Source: Rhododendron vialii
Lineage: Eukaryota; Streptophyta; Magnoliopsida; Ericales; Ericaceae
Reading direction: 5' to 3'
Assembly: GCF_030253575.1 (NCBI RefSeq)
Contig: NC_080568.1
Span: 20,236,501 to 20,300,500 of the forward strand
Length of the DNA stretch: 64,000 nt
Shown here: piece by piece, positions 3,218 to 45,903 of the stretch
Numbering within the stretch: the stretch's first letter is position 1
How the letters are laid out: the number at the start of each line of letters is the position of its first letter
The notes under the pieces: generated by a model
The model's database searches: none
What the model saw: the letters and a program-made list of their open reading frames with translations, nothing else
Told to the model about the DNA's origin: nothing
Translations under genes and position numbers: made by a program

Positions 3218-3541
3218 GGGCGCCGCTATTCGCAGCCCTTTATTTACTCTCATAGCCCGTTAAAAATTTTCAATTATACTCGACAGTTAGTTACCGAAAT
3301 TGAGATATATTTTCAGCATCCAATTACCGAAATATAATATTTTTTTCAACAGATGTTTACCGAAAATGCATGTTCGGCAGTTGTTTACCGAAAGTTGAAC
3401 ATATTTTCGACATGTAGTTACCGAAATATAATCTTGTTTTCAACAACAATTTACCGAAATGTTATTTATGATTTTCAACAACCATTTACCGAAATATAAT
3501 GGGCTACGGGAGAAAATAAAGGGCTGCGAATAGCAGCACCC
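3218..3541. mobile_element. Non-autonomous MULE-type MITE sharing the terminus of the 36.5-kb MULE
   Basis: A 324-bp element. The left end is GGGCGCCGCTATTCGCAGCC; the right end inverted is GGGTGCTGCTATTCGCAGCC, with the inverted repeat running about 45 bp. The flanks are a perfect 8-bp duplication TTTAATAA (3210-3217 and 3542-3549). The core GCCGCTATTCGCAGCCC is identical to the left end of the MULE at 36530. Between the ends are about seven TACCGAAA motifs (near 3293, 3325, 3358, 3386, 3419, 3452 and 3487) in a repeating 28-35-bp unit. No open frame of note. It is probably mobilised by a transposase of that MULE family (inference). Confidence 0.85.
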
Positions 3542-36521: not shown

Positions 36522-36811
36522 ACATACTTGGTGGCCGCTATTCGCAGCCCAGTTCTTGCTACTCGCAGTCAATTGCTACCTACAAACCACCACCTTATAA
36601 GGATTTGCTACTTGCAACCAACAAATTATCCCTGAATTCCCCTTTTTGCCCTTCTATACAATAAACATACAACCCAATTCAGTCTGTTCATTCCCTTCCC
36701 TTTTCTAACCTAGATTCCACAGCTCCAGTTCGTTCCAGTCCATAGCTCCTCCACCACCCACGAGTACCGGCACCACCTACCTATCCACCATTACCGGCAC
36801 CACCAACCCCC

Positions 36812-36862
<51 letters not shown>
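36812..36862. repeat. (CT)n microsatellite in the MULE left end
   Basis: About 25 CT repeats. The corresponding tract in the second copy of the left end (37846-37878) is shorter. Confidence 0.9.
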
Positions 36863-36865
<3 letters not shown>

Positions 36866-37139
36866 GTTTCTTCTTCTCTTCTTGCCCCGTTTCTTCTTCT
36901 CTTTCATCAATCATCACAACACCACTCTCACCACACCATAATAGCAGTACAACTTTGAGGCGAAGGAGGTGTGAGAGGAAAGCACAACACACCGGCATCA
37001 CCAACTATTTCGAAGTCGAACATCGGTAAAATTTTGAATCTTATAATTACGCGGTTTTTTTTTTTTTTTTGTTCGATTTTTGTTTGAATTTTTTTGAGAA
37101 ACCCATAGTAAGTATGTACTGCTATTTCGTATATTTCAG

Positions 37140-37365
37140 ATTTAATCGAACATTAGAGTCCAATTGTTTTCCACAGCTTCGAATATTAAAGTCTAATTGT
37201 TTGCCCCCTATTCGGATTTTCATATCTGAAATTGATTACATCATTCGGATTTTAATTTCCGATTGTTAGATCATTCAGAATTTAATATCCAAAATGTATT
37301 GCCTCATTTGGACTTTAAATATCCAAAAGTTTATACCTCATTCGGACATTACAGTCCGATTAGTA
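37140..37365. repeat. Palindrome cluster 1 (left outer)
   Basis: About seven copies of a 20-bp dyad of the type TTCGGATTTTAATATCCGAA, spaced 30-35 bp, for example near 37210, 37243, 37272, 37307 and 37340. They alternate in sequence between an ATTTTAAT-type and an ACATTAGAGT-type centre. Confidence 0.85.
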
Positions 37366-37519
37366 CCATCTAATGAGTTTCTGTAATGCTTACGGTGGTT
37401 TGTTGCTTGATAAATTATAAGTGTGCTAGAACTCGAGGATACACATATTGTCTATATTTGGTTATTCAAAATGGCTAAATATTAAGTTTCGATTGGGTTG
37501 TAGACTTGCTATTCGAATA

Positions 37520-37842
37520 GGTGGCTGCTATTTGCAGCCCAGTTTGTGCTACTCTCAGTCGATTGCTACCTACAAACCACCATCTTATAAGGATTTGCTA
37601 CTTGCAACCAAAAAAATATCCCTGAACTTCCCTTTTTGCCTTTGTATAAAGAATACATACAACCCAACAATCAAATATCCCAACACCTCTTTTTTTCTCC
37701 CCGTTCGTTCCTTTTCTGACCTAGGTCTTCACCCACCCCCCCCCCCCCCCCGTTCCTTCTCTGGTCCACAACACCACCACCCACCCACCCACCATTACCG
37801 CCAGGTTTGCCACCACCCACCCCACAGTGCCATCTCCCCCTC

Positions 37843-37881
<39 letters not shown>

Positions 37882-38400
37882 CCCCGTTTCTTCTTCTCTT
37901 CCCTCTGTGACCACCACAACACCACTCCCACCACACCACAACAACAACACAACTTTGAGGTGAAGGAGGTGTGAGAAGGAAGCACAACACGCCGGCATCA
38001 CCAACAATTTCGAAGTTGAACATCGGTAAAATTTTGAATCTTGTTATTACGCGGTTTTTTTTATTTCCGTATGATTTTTTTCTTGATAAACCCACGAGCG
38101 TACTGCTATTTCATGTATCTATTTCATGTATTTTGAATATAATCGAACATCAGAGTCTGATTGTTTGACACGATTTTGGATATTAAAGTCTGATTATTTG
38201 TCCCCTATTCGGATTTTAAGATCAAAAATTGATTACCTCATTCAGATTTTAGTATCTGATTGGCCGATTGGCCCTTGTGTATTACAGCAGTAGCTAAATT
38301 TGTTAGTATAGCTCATTCGGAATGTAATATCTGAAATTTTTTGCCTCATTCGGATTTTAATATCCGAAATATTTGGCCCCATTCGGACTTTAAATTTTAC
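37520..38400. repeat. Second copy of the MULE left end, in direct orientation
   Basis: The sequence from 37520 (GGTGGCTGCTATTTGCAGCC) repeats that from 36530 in order: the TIR, CTACCTACAAACCACCA, a CT tract, AGCACAACACRCCGGCATCA, and the palindrome cluster. The offset is 990 bp. Its first 19 bases match the right TIR better than the outer left TIR does. Either a tandem duplication of the left end or the remains of a second MULE nested end to end. Confidence 0.85.
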
Positions 38401-38705
38401 CCGAGTTATGTATGTATTTTACCCCAATTCTGTAATCGGTCTCTGTAAGTTTTTCACTCTAGACGTTTTCATCATATAATGTGAACCGATTAGACAATGA
38501 CACAAACCATTGACATTGTCCAGGAATGATTGACAAAATTTTTGGATTTTAATATGTAGCTGAATTTGTAAGGTAAGGTCATTCAGAATTTAATATCTGA
38601 AATGTTTTGCCTCATTCGGATTTTAATATCCAAAGTATTTTACCCCATTCGGACATTAGAGTCCGATTTGTTCCCTCTATTTCAATCATTAGAATCCGAT
38701 TGTGA
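38150..38705. repeat. Palindrome cluster 2 (left inner)
   Basis: About ten copies, including CATTCGGATTTTAATATCCG and CATTCGGACATTAGAGTCCG near 38340-38365 and 38590-38675. Two centre types recur, as in the other clusters. Confidence 0.85.
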
Positions 38706-39403
38706 GAACGCATAAACATTCATAACATTACCCCACTCGGAGTTCTTTCTTCCCCATTGAAAAAGAATAGGAAAACCCTAGTTTGGCATGAAGAACTTGA
38801 AGTAATCTCTTGGAGTTTGACAAGTAATCTGAAAATTTCTCTTCTTGTGGTAAGAAATCTTCCTTAAACTACGAGTATTGATGAATATGTGCATATAGAA
38901 TCAACCTACATGGAAGAGATTTAAGAATTATGGTTCTATAGTGCTTACATGGTGATTTTATACCTAATTCATCTTAAATTCTCAAATATTGTTAATTTGT
39001 GGATAATATGATTTTGATCATGGAAACCCAAGATTGATGCATGTTAGTTGGTATATAGATGGATTATGAGCATGAACTTGTAGAATTTTGAAGTTGCTTA
39101 CTGCTATTGATGTGAAGATATTTTAGAAAATTTGGGCAGCATCCAAAGCTGTATTTTTCATCAAATTTGTTATACTTAGACAAGTTTATTGGTTATGGGT
39201 CCTTTCGACAAGGACGGGACATTAACAACTACAAGTGGGACTTGGATTCGGACACGAACACGACACCGTGTCCAACACAGACACGAGATATTGACAACTA
39301 TGAGTGAGACTTGGATATGGACTCAGACACATTCATAACTGTGATGTATTCTTATTCCATTTAATCATTAGTAATTATATGTATTATGTGTAATAAAATG
39401 CAG

Positions 39404-40255
39404 GCATGGGTTCGGGAGCATTTTCCTATGTTTCGACACGCTAGGGACCCAGCCTACACGGAGGACCTACCACTGGCAGCACGTTGGTTGTCACGTTGGG
39501 AGACTACCATGGAGACCACTTACCACTACCGTGGGATGTTAGACGATCTACGTCCTAGTCAGGTTAGTGGAAAACTTAAGTATGTTTTGAGTTAGATACT
39601 TATCTTCAAATACGAAATTATGTATTGTAACATGTTTTTTTTTTCGCAGGTTGTTTTTGACCCGTACACAGATCGCAGGCAAGTAGTCGCAGATGTTGTT
39701 TTTTACACGGGCTGCAACCGTGCCATGGTCGTCTTTGAGCCGTATCTACCTGATAGAGTATTGAGGCAGTTCGGCATGGTGCAGTTGGTCCCTGGGCCTC
39801 CGTTAGTCCCATTGCGAGGTAGTAAAGGCGCTAATAGTCATTCATACAGTGTGGTTTACGCGTACACAGATGGTCAATGGGAAAATTGGCGCGATCATGT
39901 CATGAATGCAGAGAAACGAGTTGCGATTCAGCCTGGAGTCCCGTGGGAGTCACACCCCGACTACCTTCCTTGGTTTTTGACGGTCTCCCACTTCAGGGTC
40001 TCACCCCGTCCCGTAGAGGTGCCGTATACCGAGAGTACGGAAGAGCACAATGCAGCGGCTTTGGCCATTTTGGACAGTGTTTTGGGTGGGACTAGGGCTA
40101 GGACTTCAACTTGCCCGTATGAACTACGATAAGCACTTGTTGAAGTGCAGATGACTTTGAGGGGACCGGAGGCTGCTGAAGCAAGCATAGCAGGCCCTAG
40201 TTCTAATCGTTACTCGAGTCGTTACACTAGGTGCCGGCGCCATGACCGCACTTGA
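39404..40255 (+). pseudogene. Plant mobile domain (PMD, MAIN-like) gene, C-terminal two exons with one stop
   Basis: Exon 39404-39562 starts after TGCAG and encodes AWVREHFPMFRHARDPAYTE and the conserved WETTMETTYHYRGMLDDLRP. Exon 39650-40255 encodes VVFDPYTDRRQVVADVVFYT, the strongly conserved RVLRQFGMVQLVPGPPL, a WRDHVMNAEKR helix and PYTESTEEHNAAALAILDSV. An in-frame TAA at 40130-40132 follows YELR; the frame then continues with family-like LRGPEAAEA and a basic tail to TGA at 40253-40255. No N-terminal exons were found. PMD proteins occur both as host silencing/meristem factors (MAIN, MAIL1) and inside transposons; here the gene lies inside a MULE, so it is treated as transposon cargo. 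Confidence 0.8.
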
Positions 40256-40835
40256 GACTTGGTGTTCTCTGGCTTGTTTTTAATGGACTTTATGGCTTGT
40301 TTTTGATGGCCTTTATGGCCTTGTATTTATTTTGGACACTTTATGACCATGGTTTATGGACTACTTTTCGTGGCGGAATGAATTTTGTTTTAGTGCGGAT
40401 AACTATTAGGATATTTGTAATAATTGGATATCGTTAAAATATGAATGTTAAGTAGGGCACCAAAACGTAAATTTTATAGTTGAATCATTCTTGATACTTT
40501 TCTAGGCACAAATAATTCGCTGCACAATAGTCGTATGTGAAAATTTAGATTTAAATGAGGAGTGCCGTACGAACCGACAATGCTCTAGACAAACAAAGAA
40601 CACTACCAAAAACAAGGGTTTGCATAAATTTCATGTTTTACAATAAGATTCTATGAACTAAAATTTTACATAAAAGTCCTTCGAGCCAACCTAGTCTAGT
40701 TTGATTATGTCCGTCATTGCCACATTGTTCCCCACTATGTTTTTAAACTCTTCAATCTTGTTTGAATATTGTGTATCCTATCCATTCGCGAATGAGTAGT
40801 GATGTATATACCAATTCCTTGCAATAGGCGGGATG
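40256..40835. other. MULE interior, no gene seen
   Basis: AT-rich spacer between the PMD gene and the OTU remnant, with no palindromes of the repeated type. Confidence 0.5.
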
Positions 40836-41010
40836 GGGGAATTTGGTCGTAAATGTACCGTTACAAAGTGATCGCCGTTAACGTGTCCGAGCGCAATCAA
40901 ACGTCAACTCTCAGGGGGAAGGGGCAGATATCGTAGTGGGAGGAACGTAAGACATTGATGATTCGATAAAAAGACAACCACCGCCTGAAAAGCATATGCT
41001 ATGAGGTGAA
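40836..41010 (-). pseudogene. Second, degenerate OTU-domain C-terminal fragment
   Basis: The minus strand reads HLIAYAFQAVVVFLSNHQCL then TFLPLR, and after a break GHVNGDHF. This parallels HIIASAYNCVVVHLSNVQCL and TFLPLQ in the transposase-linked OTU domain at 42.3-42.6 kb. The DNA shares GGAGGAAYGTAAGACATTGA. It may be an older duplicated 3' end of the transposase gene, or part of a separate MULE joined to this one. Confidence 0.6.
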
Positions 41011-41444
41011 CATAAGAATTTTGCTCCAAAAACCCATTTTGTCGGTTTCCAGTTAACCCATTGTAATTTATTGTAGAGAATCTGAAATTTCATTGAATAG
41101 TCATGTCGGAAAAATTTCTACACAAAATCCGTTCTCTTATTCAACAAAATCTCAGGTGTCATTTAATAGTCCTATCAGCACGTATTTTGAGGCATAAATT
41201 CGCTCCATATAACCCATTTTTTACTACAGAAAAATGCCAGCATCATTGGATTTTTGGACACAAACACGTTTTACGAGGAATAAAATTCCTGCAAATGTAT
41301 ATTTTCATGTTGCCACGCTATACGAGGAAGAATTACATCCCATTTTCACCAATAATAAATAAGGGAGTTAATTTTCAAATTTTCCTTTTAATATCCATAC
41401 TCTTTTTCGTCCATTACAGCCCATTCATTCGGAGAAACTTCAAT

Positions 41445-41845
41445 TCGAAAATAAATATCCAAAATATATAACAAGTTTTGGACTTTAATTTCTGATTTAT
41501 ATATCAGTACTTGGATTTTAATTTCCGAACAGAATGAGAACTATCAGATAGAATAACACCAATCGGACACTAATGTTCGAACTGGATCAATCATTTCGGA
41601 AATAAATATCCGAAAGTTATACCCATGTTCAGACTTTAATATCTGATTTTCATACCTTTAATTGGATTCTAATTTCCGAACAGGATGAAAACTATGAGAT
41701 AGCCTGACACCATTCAGATACTAATGTTCGAATTGGATCAATAATTTCGAAAAGAAATATCCGAAATTTATACCCATGTTCAGACTTTAATATCTTATTT
41801 GTATACCTTTAATTGGATTCTAATTTCCGAACAAAATGAAAACTA
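41445..41845. repeat. Palindrome cluster 3 (right inner)
   Basis: About ten dyads in three repeating blocks of roughly 120 bp, such as TTTCGGAAATAAATATCCGA, GTTCAGACTTTAATATCTGA and CGGACACTAATGTTCGAA. Symmetry is looser than in cluster 4. Confidence 0.8.
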
Positions 41846-42312
41846 GTCAAATGCATGACACCATTCTTGTTTCTGAACAGAATGTCACCAACTTGACAAC
41901 TATGAGTTTTCAAACAGAAATACAATATAAGAGTTTCATTGATGATCCGAAAACTACTAGCAGACGTAATCATCCAATTTTCATAATATTAGAACACATT
42001 ATATAATACAACACATTAAATCGTTTCTCAATCTTCTGAATGGCTAATTGACATGGATGACCTCCTTTGTTGCTACGTCAACGCCGATGATTTCATTGAA
42101 CTTCTGAATGGCTGCAACATGTGCTGCATCCCAATTTTTAGCGATAGAAAGACGATATTTTTTCCAATTGCAAGCTATTGGCGGCATAGGGGAACCTTTT
42201 TTAAGGAATACCTATCAAATTGCATTACGTACTTATAAAAGATAAATTAAGTTGGATTTAAAGAGCACAATTCATTATATAGATGACAACAAATCATTTA
42301 CCAAAATAATAC

Positions 42313-45300
42313 TTATACAAAGTGTCCGCCGTCAACAAACCTGATAGTAATAACCTTTCGTTTCATGGAGGGTAAAGGCTTCGATTGGAGGGGGAGGAAT
42401 GTAAGACATTGAACATTTGATAAATGGACAACGACACAATTATAAGCAGATGCTATGATGTGACCCATGTCTGGCATTGTCATCCAATGTTCCTGGGGCG
42501 CCGGACTTTCATACCATGACAAGATGTGAAGTAATTCCCTAGCCCTCTGCGTCACCCCTACCACTTGTTCATAAACGTGTAAATGTGTTTCCAACTCTTT
42601 CAGCAAATCACTTCTTACCATTAACCACTCATGAACATCGTCTTTCATGAAGTCCGACACTGCTCAAAACCCACAATTCCCATCATCTTCAACATCCTTG
42701 ACCGATTCTATGTAAGGTCTTATTGCTTCTGGGAACTGATTGATGAAGGGGCATATAAAAAGTTGTGCTAGAACTTTTGCTTTCCCTTTCAGATTACACC
42801 GCGGTTTCTCTTTGACAGGCTTAGGGGTTTGAAGGAATGCCAGAACATGCTCAAATTCCGAGGGATCCCTACGCGTCGAATTTTGTTCTTTGGCTGCATT
42901 TTTTTCTTTCGTTGACTTCCGACCGCGTGGTTGTGCATTCACTTTGGGTTCAAGGAGAGTATTGGTTTTCGGATGAGCAAGCTCTTGCATTTTCTTAACA
43001 TAATTTAGCTTTACATCAAATTGATCTTCATTCAAGAACTTGTTGTAAAAATAATCAAAGTGAGCCAAAAGCGTCTCCTCCATCGAACCCTCATTCTGGG
43101 GTGCAAGCAAAGAAATCCTCTTCCAATGGTCGTAGATTAACTCAATCGGTAGAGGGATATTTGCCATCTTGTAAGGAGCAATCTCATGAGCGCAAGGTAA
43201 ACCATGGGTGTGCCTCAAAGAACACTCGCATTGACGCTTCGATTCCACAAACCATTCGACTTGATAGGATGCCACTAAAACAAGTGTCATGGCATTTGAC
43301 GAAACAACTCCCCTTAGCCTATCAAATAGAGTTGTCCTAAAATCATGTTGCACAGAATTAAGGCTCTTCTCAAACGAAGCTTTGACTTCAGTAACTTGTA
43401 ACAGCATCAATCTGTGAATCTTCTCCCATATAGTATCAAAATTGCATTGCGAGCTTTCAAGATGATTTTTTAGCTTCAAATGTGAACTCTCCGCCCTATG
43501 AATAAATATGGCAAGATATTAACCGTAGCAAATAACATGAATAAATGAAAATTTTCCAAAAACGCGTGAATAACATGAATATTAAGGAAAATGCCAAAGT
43601 TATGAATGAAGCATTTACCTGTTACTTGTTAGGTTTTCGAAATGCATGACTTTGTCCGTCCAAGCTCCTACAAACCTCTCTTTGTAGGGTACCAACCAAT
43701 TTTTCTCGACGTACTTAAGTGCTGGAGGAACCATTTCAAAATTACGCCTCAAAACACAAAGGCGCTCCTCATACTGTGCAACACCCGATGAAAGGACGAC
43801 TAGGCCCCAACTGCAAATAAATTCCTCCCACATCTTGTCATCAAACATCTTTCTACACTTGGCTAATACGTTCTTGCCAATATGCCACCTACATAAGAGG
43901 TTGGTAGCTTGAGGGAAAACATGTGCGATGGCATTCATAAGCGCCAACTCTCTATTTGTGACAATAACGGACGGAAGCGCGTTGGGATCCATCATGCCTT
44001 TTAGCTTCTCCAAGACCCCAGTGTAGTTTTCCGTTTTTTCACACTCCATGAAAGCAAATGCTGCACAAAAAGTCATCTCCGTCGATGTTACACCAACAAT
44101 TTGAAGCAAAGGAAACTTGTACTTATTCGTCTTGTATGTGCAATCCATCATTAAAACGTGGGAAAAAGCACGTAACGTCTCCCCGGCAGATGGAGGAGAC
44201 CAAAATAACTCCGTGACATTCTCAGTCTCGTTCCCACGGGTCCAATGAACGTAGTGGTACTTTTCTAGCCGATCCAACAAATGTTGCATTTGAGATTTTC
44301 CAGCTTTCTCTATCACTCGATACTTTTGTCGTACATTGTACACGGTTTTGATAGACGTTACGTTCTCAGGATCTTAAACCTTCAAATGGGTTAGGATTTC
44401 TTTGGATTTCACCAAAGCAACTAACAAATCAACCACCGTGCTAGTCTACTCTGCCAACAACCTCCCGGCATACGAATAGCCCTCCAAGTACACCGCTGGA
44501 GGATGGTTATAAGTGCCATTGTGGATAAAAACAGTCCAACCATCATTGCCCTTTACAGCTTTCAATTCAAATGGGCATTGACATTTTTTGGTGCTCGTGG
44601 ACCGTACTCTCTTCTTCACAGCTACCTCCTTCCCATCAACTTTCTTCATAAACGGCCTATACTTACCACTCCTTTCACATGAAAATCTCATCCTATGTGT
44701 GCGATTCTTAATACATTTCTCAGAACCCTTAATCACAATGATAAACCCGTGTTGTTTTCCAGTGCATCTTATCCAATCTACCAACGCTTCATCGGATAGA
44801 AAAACCTACACACACATAACAAAAAATTATAGCCCATAATATAAGATTGCACAAAATAAAAACACTTACCATCTCCGTTGTAAAATGCTCCATATAATCG
44901 TATGAAGGACAAGTTGAAGTAGGTATAGTCGATGGCCCTACATAACTACCAAGTGTTAAAGTGTCAACCTGTAACACCCAAAGACCAACCAGGTAAGTGT
45001 AGGATTTTCTGCAGTTTTATTCAGATATTAATATCTGAAAACTGGCACTAAATTCGGATATAAGAGTCCAAAAATGTTGACAATATTTGGATATTAATAT
45101 CCGAAAAGTTGTACATAATTCAGACATTAGAGTCCGAAAAGTTAGTAAATTTTTGGCACTATGTATCCAACTGTAAATACAGGATTTTCTGCAGTTTCAT
45201 TCAGAGATTAATATCTGAAAACTGACACTAAATTCGAATATAAGAGTCCAACAACGTTGACGATATTCGAATATTAATATCCGAATAGTTGTACATAATT

Positions 45301-45565
45301 CAGATATTAGAGTCTGAAAAGTTAGTTAAGTTTTGGCACTGCGTGTCCAACTGTGTCAGGCCAGAACTGAAATTGAAAATGGAGGGCTTCTGAAATTGAA
45401 AATGGAGGGCGGGCTTACCTCTTGCTGCGATTTTTGCTCCGTCACTACAACATCTTTGACATGTTTCTCAACATCCATTGTGTGATCTTCCGACTTCAAA
45501 TCGTGGTCAACTATTGCTTGTTTATCAATGGATGGAGAAGAAGCAATCGAGGTTTCCATTGACAA
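42313..45565 (-). pseudogene. MULE transposase (MURA) fused to SWIM zinc finger and OTU-like protease domain
   Basis: Four exons, minus strand: 45419-45565, 44870-44968, 43619-44805 and 42313-43495, all GT-AG and in phase. In order: an acidic leader; a FAR1/WRKY-like DNA-binding region (RMRFSCERSGKYRP, CQCPFELKAVKG and TYNHP); the MULE core with LMMDCTYKTNKYKFPLLQIV, VTNRELALMNAIAHVFP and LLCRWHIGKNVLAKC; a SWIM finger CECSLRHTHGLPCAHE; and an OTU domain with DDGNCGF and VDGGHF. The second catalytic Asp of the DDE triad, normally in VTDRELAL, is Asn here. In-frame stops lie after GRLLAE (TAG), after ILTHLKV (TAA) and directly after DDGNCGF (TGA, next to the OTU Cys). Otherwise the frame is intact over about 1000 codons, so inactivation looks recent. 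Confidence 0.85.
45001..45354. repeat. Palindrome cluster 4: 180-bp tandem repeat with four dyads per unit
   Basis: Two 180-bp units start AGGATTTTCTGCAGTTT at 45001 and 45181. Each has four 20-bp dyads. In unit 1: TTCAGATATTAATATCTGAA (45020-45039, a perfect palindrome), TTCGGATATAAGAGTCCAAA, TTTGGATATTAATATCCGAA (45086-45105) and TTCAGACATTAGAGTCCGAA (45119-45138). They lie in the first intron of the transposase gene, about 600-900 bp from the right end. Confidence 0.9.
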
Positions 45566-45903
45566 TGTAGGAGGAAGAGGAGGGGAGGAAGATAGGCAGA
45601 CTTGGATGCTGGTGGAAGGAGCCTGGTGGTGGGTGATGGCAGCTGGGGATGAAAATGGAGGAATTTAAGTGGGGGAGGGAGGAGATGTTCTGGGAGGGAG
45701 GGAGGGAAATCAGGGAGATGATTTTTTGTGGTTGTATATAATGAGTTATATAATATTTTTAAAGGGTAAAATGGTCAAATAAAATGAGGTTTTAGGGGTA
45801 TAATGGTCAAACTGCTGAGGGCATTTTTGTCCGTAATTGATAAAAATTTTAATCAACTGCGAGCAGCAAGAAGTACGCTGCAAATAGCAGCCACCACATA
45901 CTT

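What the first reader, a model, noticed from the sequence alone, without database searches (positions are those of the whole stretch)
37140..45354. Clusters of a 20-bp palindrome with paired arm changes inside a MULE
Several dozen dyads of the type TTCGGATATTAATATCCGAA occur in four clusters toward both ends of the element. Variants change both arms together: TTCGGAT..ATCCGAA, TTCGGAC..GTCCGAA and TTCAGAT..ATCTGAA all keep the inverted symmetry. Such covariation is hard to explain by simple repeat spread. It suggests that the symmetry is selected, as a dimeric binding site for the transposase or PMD protein, or as a hairpin in DNA or RNA. I know of no described MULE family defined by such arrays. 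What is seen: the motifs and covariation. What is inferred: the function.
Basis: partly seen in the sequence, partly recalled or inferred. Interest (0 to 1): 0.78.

Follow-up and report, generated by a model that had tools for sequence, protein, structure and literature searches.

The report
Phased dyad arrays in Rhododendron MULEs
A family of jumping genes in a Rhododendron-like plant carries rows of short mirror-image DNA sites mostly 33 letters apart, and a distant sister family and an abundant miniature element keep that layout with a changed motif, which suggests a protein-docking array, although the reported matched changes in the two arms are not above chance.

Summary
The motif clusters are real. 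A 9,366-bp MULE (36530-45895, 8-bp TSD) holds about 39 copies of a 20-bp dyad (TTCGGA-N8-TCCGAA), mostly 33 bp apart, in four arrays: two left, one middle, one right. The claimed covariation is not supported: arm matching is not above shuffled pairing in the window (p=0.10) or in homologous units of sibling copies (830 matched, 829.7 expected). Many arm variants look like one-sided CpG decay. What persists is half-site sequence, the 20-bp frame and the 33-bp pitch. Of 39 exact motif places in the 532.6-Mb genome, 29 were read and lie in copies of this family; the other 10 lie within 9 kb of its TIRs. A sister family (MULE domain 60% identical) has the same two convergent genes and the same array geometry, including transposase intron 1, but another inner motif and almost no alignable intron sequence. 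A 324-bp MITE (283 genome places) is little more than two TIRs plus such an array. Best reading: a phased binding-site array for a dimeric element-encoded protein, most likely the transposase, comparable to Aedes Muta1 subterminal repeats or VANDAL/VANC arrays. Binding and function are inferred, not shown. New variant of a known kind.

The parts
36530..45895 (.). MULE element, 9,366 bp, TSD ACATACTT on both sides
36530..36548 (+). left TIR start, GGTGGCCGCTATTCGCAGC
37520..37538 (+). inner copy of the left TIR; the left end is duplicated in tandem with an offset of about 990 bp
45877..45895 (-). right TIR start, GGTGGCTGCTATTTGCAGC
37145..37360 (.). dyad array 1, in the putative first intron or leader of the PMD gene
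38142..38700 (.). dyad array 2, the counterpart of array 1 in the inner copy of the left end, extended
41444..41883 (.). dyad array 3, between the convergent 3' ends; 151-bp higher-order repeat
45020..45351 (.). dyad array 4, in intron 1 of the transposase gene; 180-bp higher-order repeat
39620..40132 (+). C-terminal part of a plant mobile domain (PF10536, E 9.1e-9)
42313..44784 (-). transposase region in four ORFs; MULE domain PF10551 in 43615-44343
3218..3541 (.). separate 324-bp MITE, TSD TTTAATAA, sister-type TIRs, seven dyads mostly 33 bp apart

Best explanation
The arrays are phased rows of binding sites. Each 20-bp unit offers two inverted half-sites (TTCGG plus two or three inner bases) to a dimer, and units repeat mostly at 33 bp (about three helical turns), so that bound dimers sit on nearly the same face of the DNA. 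The binder is probably encoded by the element, most likely the transposase through its FAR1/WRKY-like N-terminal region. Many dimers loaded near the ends would help to assemble the transposition complex; binding inside intron 1 could also feed back on expression. Shown: the geometry, its confinement to these elements as far as read, its persistence in a sister family and in an amplified MITE. Inferred: that a protein binds, which one, and what binding does.
For: Half-sites 8 bp apart 168 times, any other gap from 0 to 24 at most 15 times; 87 of 88 steps under 50 bp are 33 in 20 sibling loci; arms 0.72-0.78 identical between neighbouring units, spacers 0.38-0.44, composition alone 0.28. Confinement to the family. 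A sister family with the same gene layout and 33-bp pitch, changed inner motif, array again in transposase intron 1, introns alignable over only 26 bp. MITE made of TIRs plus array, at 283 places, its parts over 500 bp apart in the full sister element. Larger indels in the intron array are 33 and 180 bp, in register; small ones 3 in 5,308 bases against 11 in 3,546 of other intron, p=0.005. Close homologue of the transposase folds like the IS256-type ISCth4 transposase (E 8.9e-10, TM 0.40).
Against: No binding data. Among sibling copies spacers are about as conserved as arms, and in 10 MITE copies outer arms vary no less than spacers (2 of 50 against 6 of 92 non-CpG sites, p=0.71). The indel contrast falls to 3 against 6 (p=0.17) when events beside homopolymers are left out. 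The middle array is far from both ends. Some ends show few dyads (L036: 3 weak ones; L027: 2; L030: 3). The MITE is one founding event. The DNA-binding domain matches are weak: FAR1 E 0.001, below Pfam's cut-off, and a WRKY33 chain E 0.08, both for the sister protein; the window's own exon had no Pfam match.
Confidence: 0.5

Rival explanations
1. Anti-silencing array: an element-encoded protein (PMD or another product) binds the arrays and lowers DNA methylation, as VANC does on VANDAL elements.
For: Arrays lie in noncoding parts: an intron of the transposase gene, the 5' part of the PMD gene and the intergenic middle, much as VANC21 motifs lie in introns of VANC21 and VANB21 and upstream of VANA21 (PMC5735166, passages). 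The motif differs between sister families, as VANC targets do. CpG in the half-sites decays as if methylated.
Against: No VANC-like gene was looked for or found; YAGTATTAY is absent from the element; a MITE without genes keeps the array, though it could be de-silenced in trans.
Confidence: 0.22
2. Neutral tandem repeat: the units spread by slippage and unequal exchange with no function.
For: Higher-order repeats of 151 and 180 bp show that duplication occurs; copy number differs by 33 and 180 bp between siblings; arms and spacers are similarly conserved among recent copies.
Against: Spacers of neighbouring units are far less alike than the dyads while pitch stays at 33 (the arm figure is inflated by how units were found); the same frame and pitch persist in a sister family without alignable intron sequence.
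Confidence: 0.14
3. Intronic enhancer read by a host transcription factor.
For: Array 4 is in intron 1 of the transposase gene in 19 aligned copies and in the sister family.
Against: The exact motif was found only in or beside these elements; the gene-less MITE keeps the array; array 3 lies between 3' ends.
Confidence: 0.09
4. DNA or RNA hairpin selected for pairing.
For: The array folds far better than shuffles (z -6.7), as any row of palindromes would.
Against: No excess of paired arm changes in the window, in siblings or in the sister family; sister-type dyads have poorly paired inner positions; arrays on both sides of the genes and in the middle share no transcript strand.
Confidence: 0.04

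Closest known systems
Aedes aegypti Muta1 and Muta5 MULEs (PMC5225508, passages seen)
   Same: MULE with 8- or 9-bp TSD whose ends hold rows of short subterminal tandem repeats; many non-autonomous derivatives keep them.
   Different: Repeats are 12 bp (Muta1) or 15 bp (Muta5), Muta1's with 3-4 bp spacers, inside the TIR; no 20-bp dyads at 33 bp, no intron or central arrays, in the passages seen.
VANDAL elements with VANC target arrays, Arabidopsis (PMC5735166, passages seen; PMC10398659, outline and abstract seen)
   Same: Short motifs in tandem arrays in noncoding regions, introns included, that differ between related elements.
   Different: Motif YAGTATTAY in one orientation, bound by VANC; here inverted half-sites, short TIRs, PMD gene, no VANC known.
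MULEs with tandem TIRs (PMC3310237, passages seen)
   Same: The left end of the window element is doubled, and so are TIRs of some relatives.
   Different: That paper's passages concern TIR doubling, not dyad arrays.
SIRC, short interrupted repeat cassettes in Arabidopsis (PMC10342631, passages seen)
   Same: Short repeats with diverse spacers, enriched in MITEs, some repeats with palindromes.
   Different: A repeat class of its own; no linked autonomous MULE and no fixed 33-bp dyad pitch in the passages seen.

Membership tests
Mutator-like element (MULE) | MULE transposase domain | tested here: met
   PF10551 E 5.8e-26 in 43615-44343
Mutator-like element (MULE) | TIRs and a target site duplication of about 8-11 bp | tested here: met
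   8-bp TSD ACATACTT; TIR identity high over the first 40 bp or so only, so the TIR is short
MULE with tandem TIRs | second TIR copy next to the first | tested here: met
   TIR at 36530 and 37520, 148-bp stretch 89% identical
VANDAL with VANC targets | YAGTATTAY motif arrays | tested here: not met
   0 in the element
VANDAL with VANC targets | VANC gene | not tested
   no VANC profile or sequence was compared
VANDAL with VANC targets | array-directed loss of DNA methylation | not testable with these tools
   no methylation data
Muta1-type subterminal repeat MULE | rows of short repeats inside the terminal inverted repeats | tested here: not met
   arrays start over 500 bp from the ends of the window element; in the MITE they start about 60 bp in
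PMD-protein DOWN-motif target | CATGCAGTTT | tested here: not met
   0 in the element
structured hairpin under selection for pairing | two-sided changes that keep pairing, above chance | tested here: not met
satellite DNA | arrays widespread outside the element | tested here: not met
   39 exact places: 29 read, all in family copies; 10 judged by TIR distance only

The most novel reading that the evidence does not exclude
A lineage of PMD-carrying MULEs uses a phased nucleoprotein array, dimer sites every 33 bp, as an essential cis part beside short TIRs, so that the smallest mobile unit is TIR + array + TIR; array motif and binding protein diversify together between families, perhaps so that each family mobilises or de-silences only its own copies.
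Probability: 0.22. Interest if true: 0.78.

Novelty: new variant of a known kind. Interest (0 to 1): 0.52.

Why it matters
If the arrays are binding sites, the two families and the MITE form a natural test of how a transposase or anti-silencing protein and its cis sites change specificity together while spacing stays fixed. It would add a case outside VANDAL and outside Arabidopsis of array-based recognition in plant MULEs, and could help to explain how a MITE with short TIRs reached hundreds of copies. It also shows that covariation read by eye from repeats needs a shuffled control.

Tried and rejected
Covariation was tested on window units, on homologous units of siblings and on sister-family units (p 0.52-0.84, 23 and 40 units) and rejected. 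The DOWN motif and YAGTATTAY are absent from the element. The motif in viral contigs: one scan, 0. Arm against spacer variation in 10 MITE copies: no difference. One search had some MITE copies in the wrong orientation; its site counts are void and one search replaces them (its TSD reading stands). The sister-unit list was extended in steps of 33, so the step count (33 in 45 of 62) is biased; the unextended lists give 33 in 20 of 36 steps for L026 and L029, with 11 of the other 16 between 46 and 60. Array-free mini-elements: only the class with 60-90 bp between TIR cores was answered (0 places); 120-150, 190-220 and 380-410 did not complete. PDB sequence search of the sister transposase pieces and NCBIfam gave only weak matches or a relation to IS256. 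Paper searches (all 10 used) gave no description of such arrays in MULEs among what was listed; no paper was read whole, and the library lacks most subscription journals, so absence there proves little.
Full report
WHAT IS THERE. The window lies in a 532.6-Mb, 13-contig assembly. The best named relatives of its transposase are from Rhododendron, so I call the host Rhododendron-like. The element is a MULE of 9,366 bp at 36530-45895 with an 8-bp TSD, ACATACTT. Its TIR start, GGTGGCYGCTATTYGCAGC, is at both ends and again at 37520, because the left end is duplicated in tandem. It carries part of a plant mobile domain (PMD) gene on the plus strand and, convergent with it, a MULE transposase on the minus strand that reads as four ORFs; I did not settle which interruptions are introns and which are damage.

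THE DYADS. I placed 39 units in register in four arrays, at 7-9%, 17-23%, 52-57% and 91-94% of the element. The usual step is 33 bp: 20 bp of dyad and 13 bp of spacer. Among dyads with at most 2 mismatches, 87 of 88 steps under 50 bp are exactly 33 in 20 sibling loci, and 10 of 11 in the window element; longer steps such as 52, 66, 75, 81 and 114 also occur. With at most one mismatch per arm, the half-sites are 8 bp apart 168 times and at any other gap from 0 to 24 at most 15 times. Between units of one array (35 of the 39 used) the outer arms are 0.72-0.78 identical and the spacers 0.38-0.44, against 0.28 expected from composition. The arm figure is inflated by the way units were found; the gap count scanned every gap alike, although the element was met through its 8-bp-gap motif.

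THE CLAIMED COVARIATION. It does not hold. In the window 185 of 273 arm pairs match, against a shuffled mean of 177.7 (p=0.10); positions 1-6 give 170 of 234 against 163.0 (p=0.07); all ten pairs give 247 of 390 against 246.7. Cells changed on both sides and still paired number 19 against 13.7 expected; 84 cells are changed on one side only. The pair G4A/C17T reaches p=0.03, one of three tested and uncorrected, and its seven units include two pairs of tandem duplicates. In homologous units across 20 loci plus the window, 830 of 1064 arm pairs match against 829.7 expected (classes a-d; class e, left out, 135 against 133.3, p=0.13), although each locus was chosen for holding one exact dyad. Much of the arm variation is C-to-T or G-to-A at the CpG, as decay of methylated cytosine would give. 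The quoted TTCGGAC-N6-GTCCGAA does not occur in the window. So the arms look alike because each keeps a consensus, not because one follows the other: that fits recognition of each half-site and not a hairpin. RNA folding of part of array 4 is strong (z -6.7), as palindromes give by construction.

GENOME CONTEXT. TTCGGATNTTAATATCCGAA occurs exactly at 39 places, by my count (one is the window's own). Of these, 28 lie within 12 kb of one of 67 TIR ends of the GGTGGC type or close to it (0.12 expected), 22 of them 603-829 bp from an end. The other 11 fall in L005, L008, L015, L017, L019 and L048-L052, which carry transposase exons or align to this element. In all, 29 of the 39 places were read and lie in copies of the family; 10 were judged by position only, nine of them 603-665 bp and one 8.7 kb from a TIR end. 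Of 20 array-bearing copies assigned, 19 with a recognisable TIR (the window included; L015 dropped; L013 and L014 not assigned) were aligned: the array lies between a conserved donor (CAAGAG|GTAAGC) and acceptor (TTACAG|G), in intron 1 of the transposase gene as read from sequence, without transcripts. There, distinct small indels number 3 in 5,308 bases of array and 11 in 3,546 bases of other intron (p=0.005; 3 against 6, p=0.17, without events beside homopolymers), and the larger ones are 33 and 180 bp, in register. Substitution levels are similar, 43.9 per kb against 45.0 and 35.7. Spacers are about as conserved as arms among these siblings.

A SISTER FAMILY. The TIR search also found 31 ends of a GGGGGC type; seven pairs mark elements of 1.3 to 14.4 kb, and 0 of the 39 exact dyads lie within 12 kb of them. 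Their arrays have the same 20-bp frame and, largely, the same pitch (33 in 20 of 36 steps in L026 and L029) but another inner motif: one half-site TTCGGTAA, the other, weaker, near TTCRRCA (57 units from L025, L026, L029, the MITE copy L033 and three from L039). The element at C1:16066722-16080283 encodes a PMD protein convergent with a transposase 53% (DNA-binding exon) and 60% (MULE domain) identical to the window's. Its right-hand array is again in transposase intron 1, judged from a donor site and weak exon 1 and 2 matches and a clear exon 3 match; other clusters lie toward the left end and between the genes, one of the latter being a nested MITE. The two 5' regions share only a 26-bp stretch. 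Between families pair 7/14 changed on both sides (T-A to A-T), but pair 6/15 did not stay complementary and pairs 4, 5 and 8-9 are poorly matched in the sister, so symmetry is only partly kept. Some ends hold few dyads: L036 three weak ones, L027 two, L030 three.

A MITE. At 3218-3541 of the window lies a 324-bp element with 8-bp TSD TTTAATAA whose body is seven dyads of the sister type. The genome has 283 places with exact TIR cores at this size (about fifty were listed and I looked at those only); of 1,265 first-look candidates 40 were scored, giving 43 rows of at least 322 bp at 93-100% identity. Its first 59 bp match the end of the sister element and its middle matches the intron array, which lie over 500 bp apart in the full element, so I infer that flanking DNA was lost while the array stayed. 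This is one founding event, not 283. A search for TIR pairs with 60-90 bp between them found none; other sizes did not complete. In 10 copies outer arms vary no less than spacers.

INTERPRETATION. Kept half-sites, frame and pitch with drifting spacers, confinement to these elements as far as read, persistence in a sister family and in a stripped-down MITE fit a phased array of dimer-binding sites. The transposase is my first candidate as binder: both families encode it, the sister's N-terminal region has weak FAR1 and WRKY matches (E 0.001 and 0.08), and a homologue's model resembles the IS256-type ISCth4 transposase. VANC-like anti-silencing is the main rival and would better explain the middle array (PMC5735166, passages). 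The nearest structural precedent for repeats kept by non-autonomous MULEs is Muta1 of Aedes (PMC5225508, passages). No tool here can show binding or effect.

Noticed in passing
3218-3541: 324-bp MITE with sister-type TIRs and dyad array, 8-bp TSD, one of at least 283 similar places in the genome.
   Followed up: yes
G000 C6:3217764-3218421, C2:9523454-9524111, C1:17066071-17066726: Pairs of full-length MITEs in tandem with only 10, 10 and 8 bp between them, as if inserted beside each other at or near the TSD.
   Followed up: no
36530-38510 and G000 C11:38766434/38768269, C5:12988860/12990969, C13:26563357/26565129: Doubled TIRs at one end of the window element and of some relatives.
   Followed up: partly
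39620-40132; 42313-44784: PMD gene lacks its N-terminal part here and the transposase reads as four ORFs; the sister element has a longer PMD reading frame.
   Followed up: partly
homologues P0040, P0058, P0064, P0073, P0097, P0099: MULE transposase relatives carry the public name 'PKS-NRPS hybrid synthetase', probably a propagated misannotation.
   Followed up: no
G000 GGGGGC-type pairs: Sister elements fall in two tight size classes, 13,549-13,562 bp (three) and 14,386-14,390 bp (two), suggesting recent copies.
   Followed up: no
arrays in L026, L029 and the window: Irregular steps cluster near 46-53 bp, about one and a half units; unexplained.
   Followed up: no
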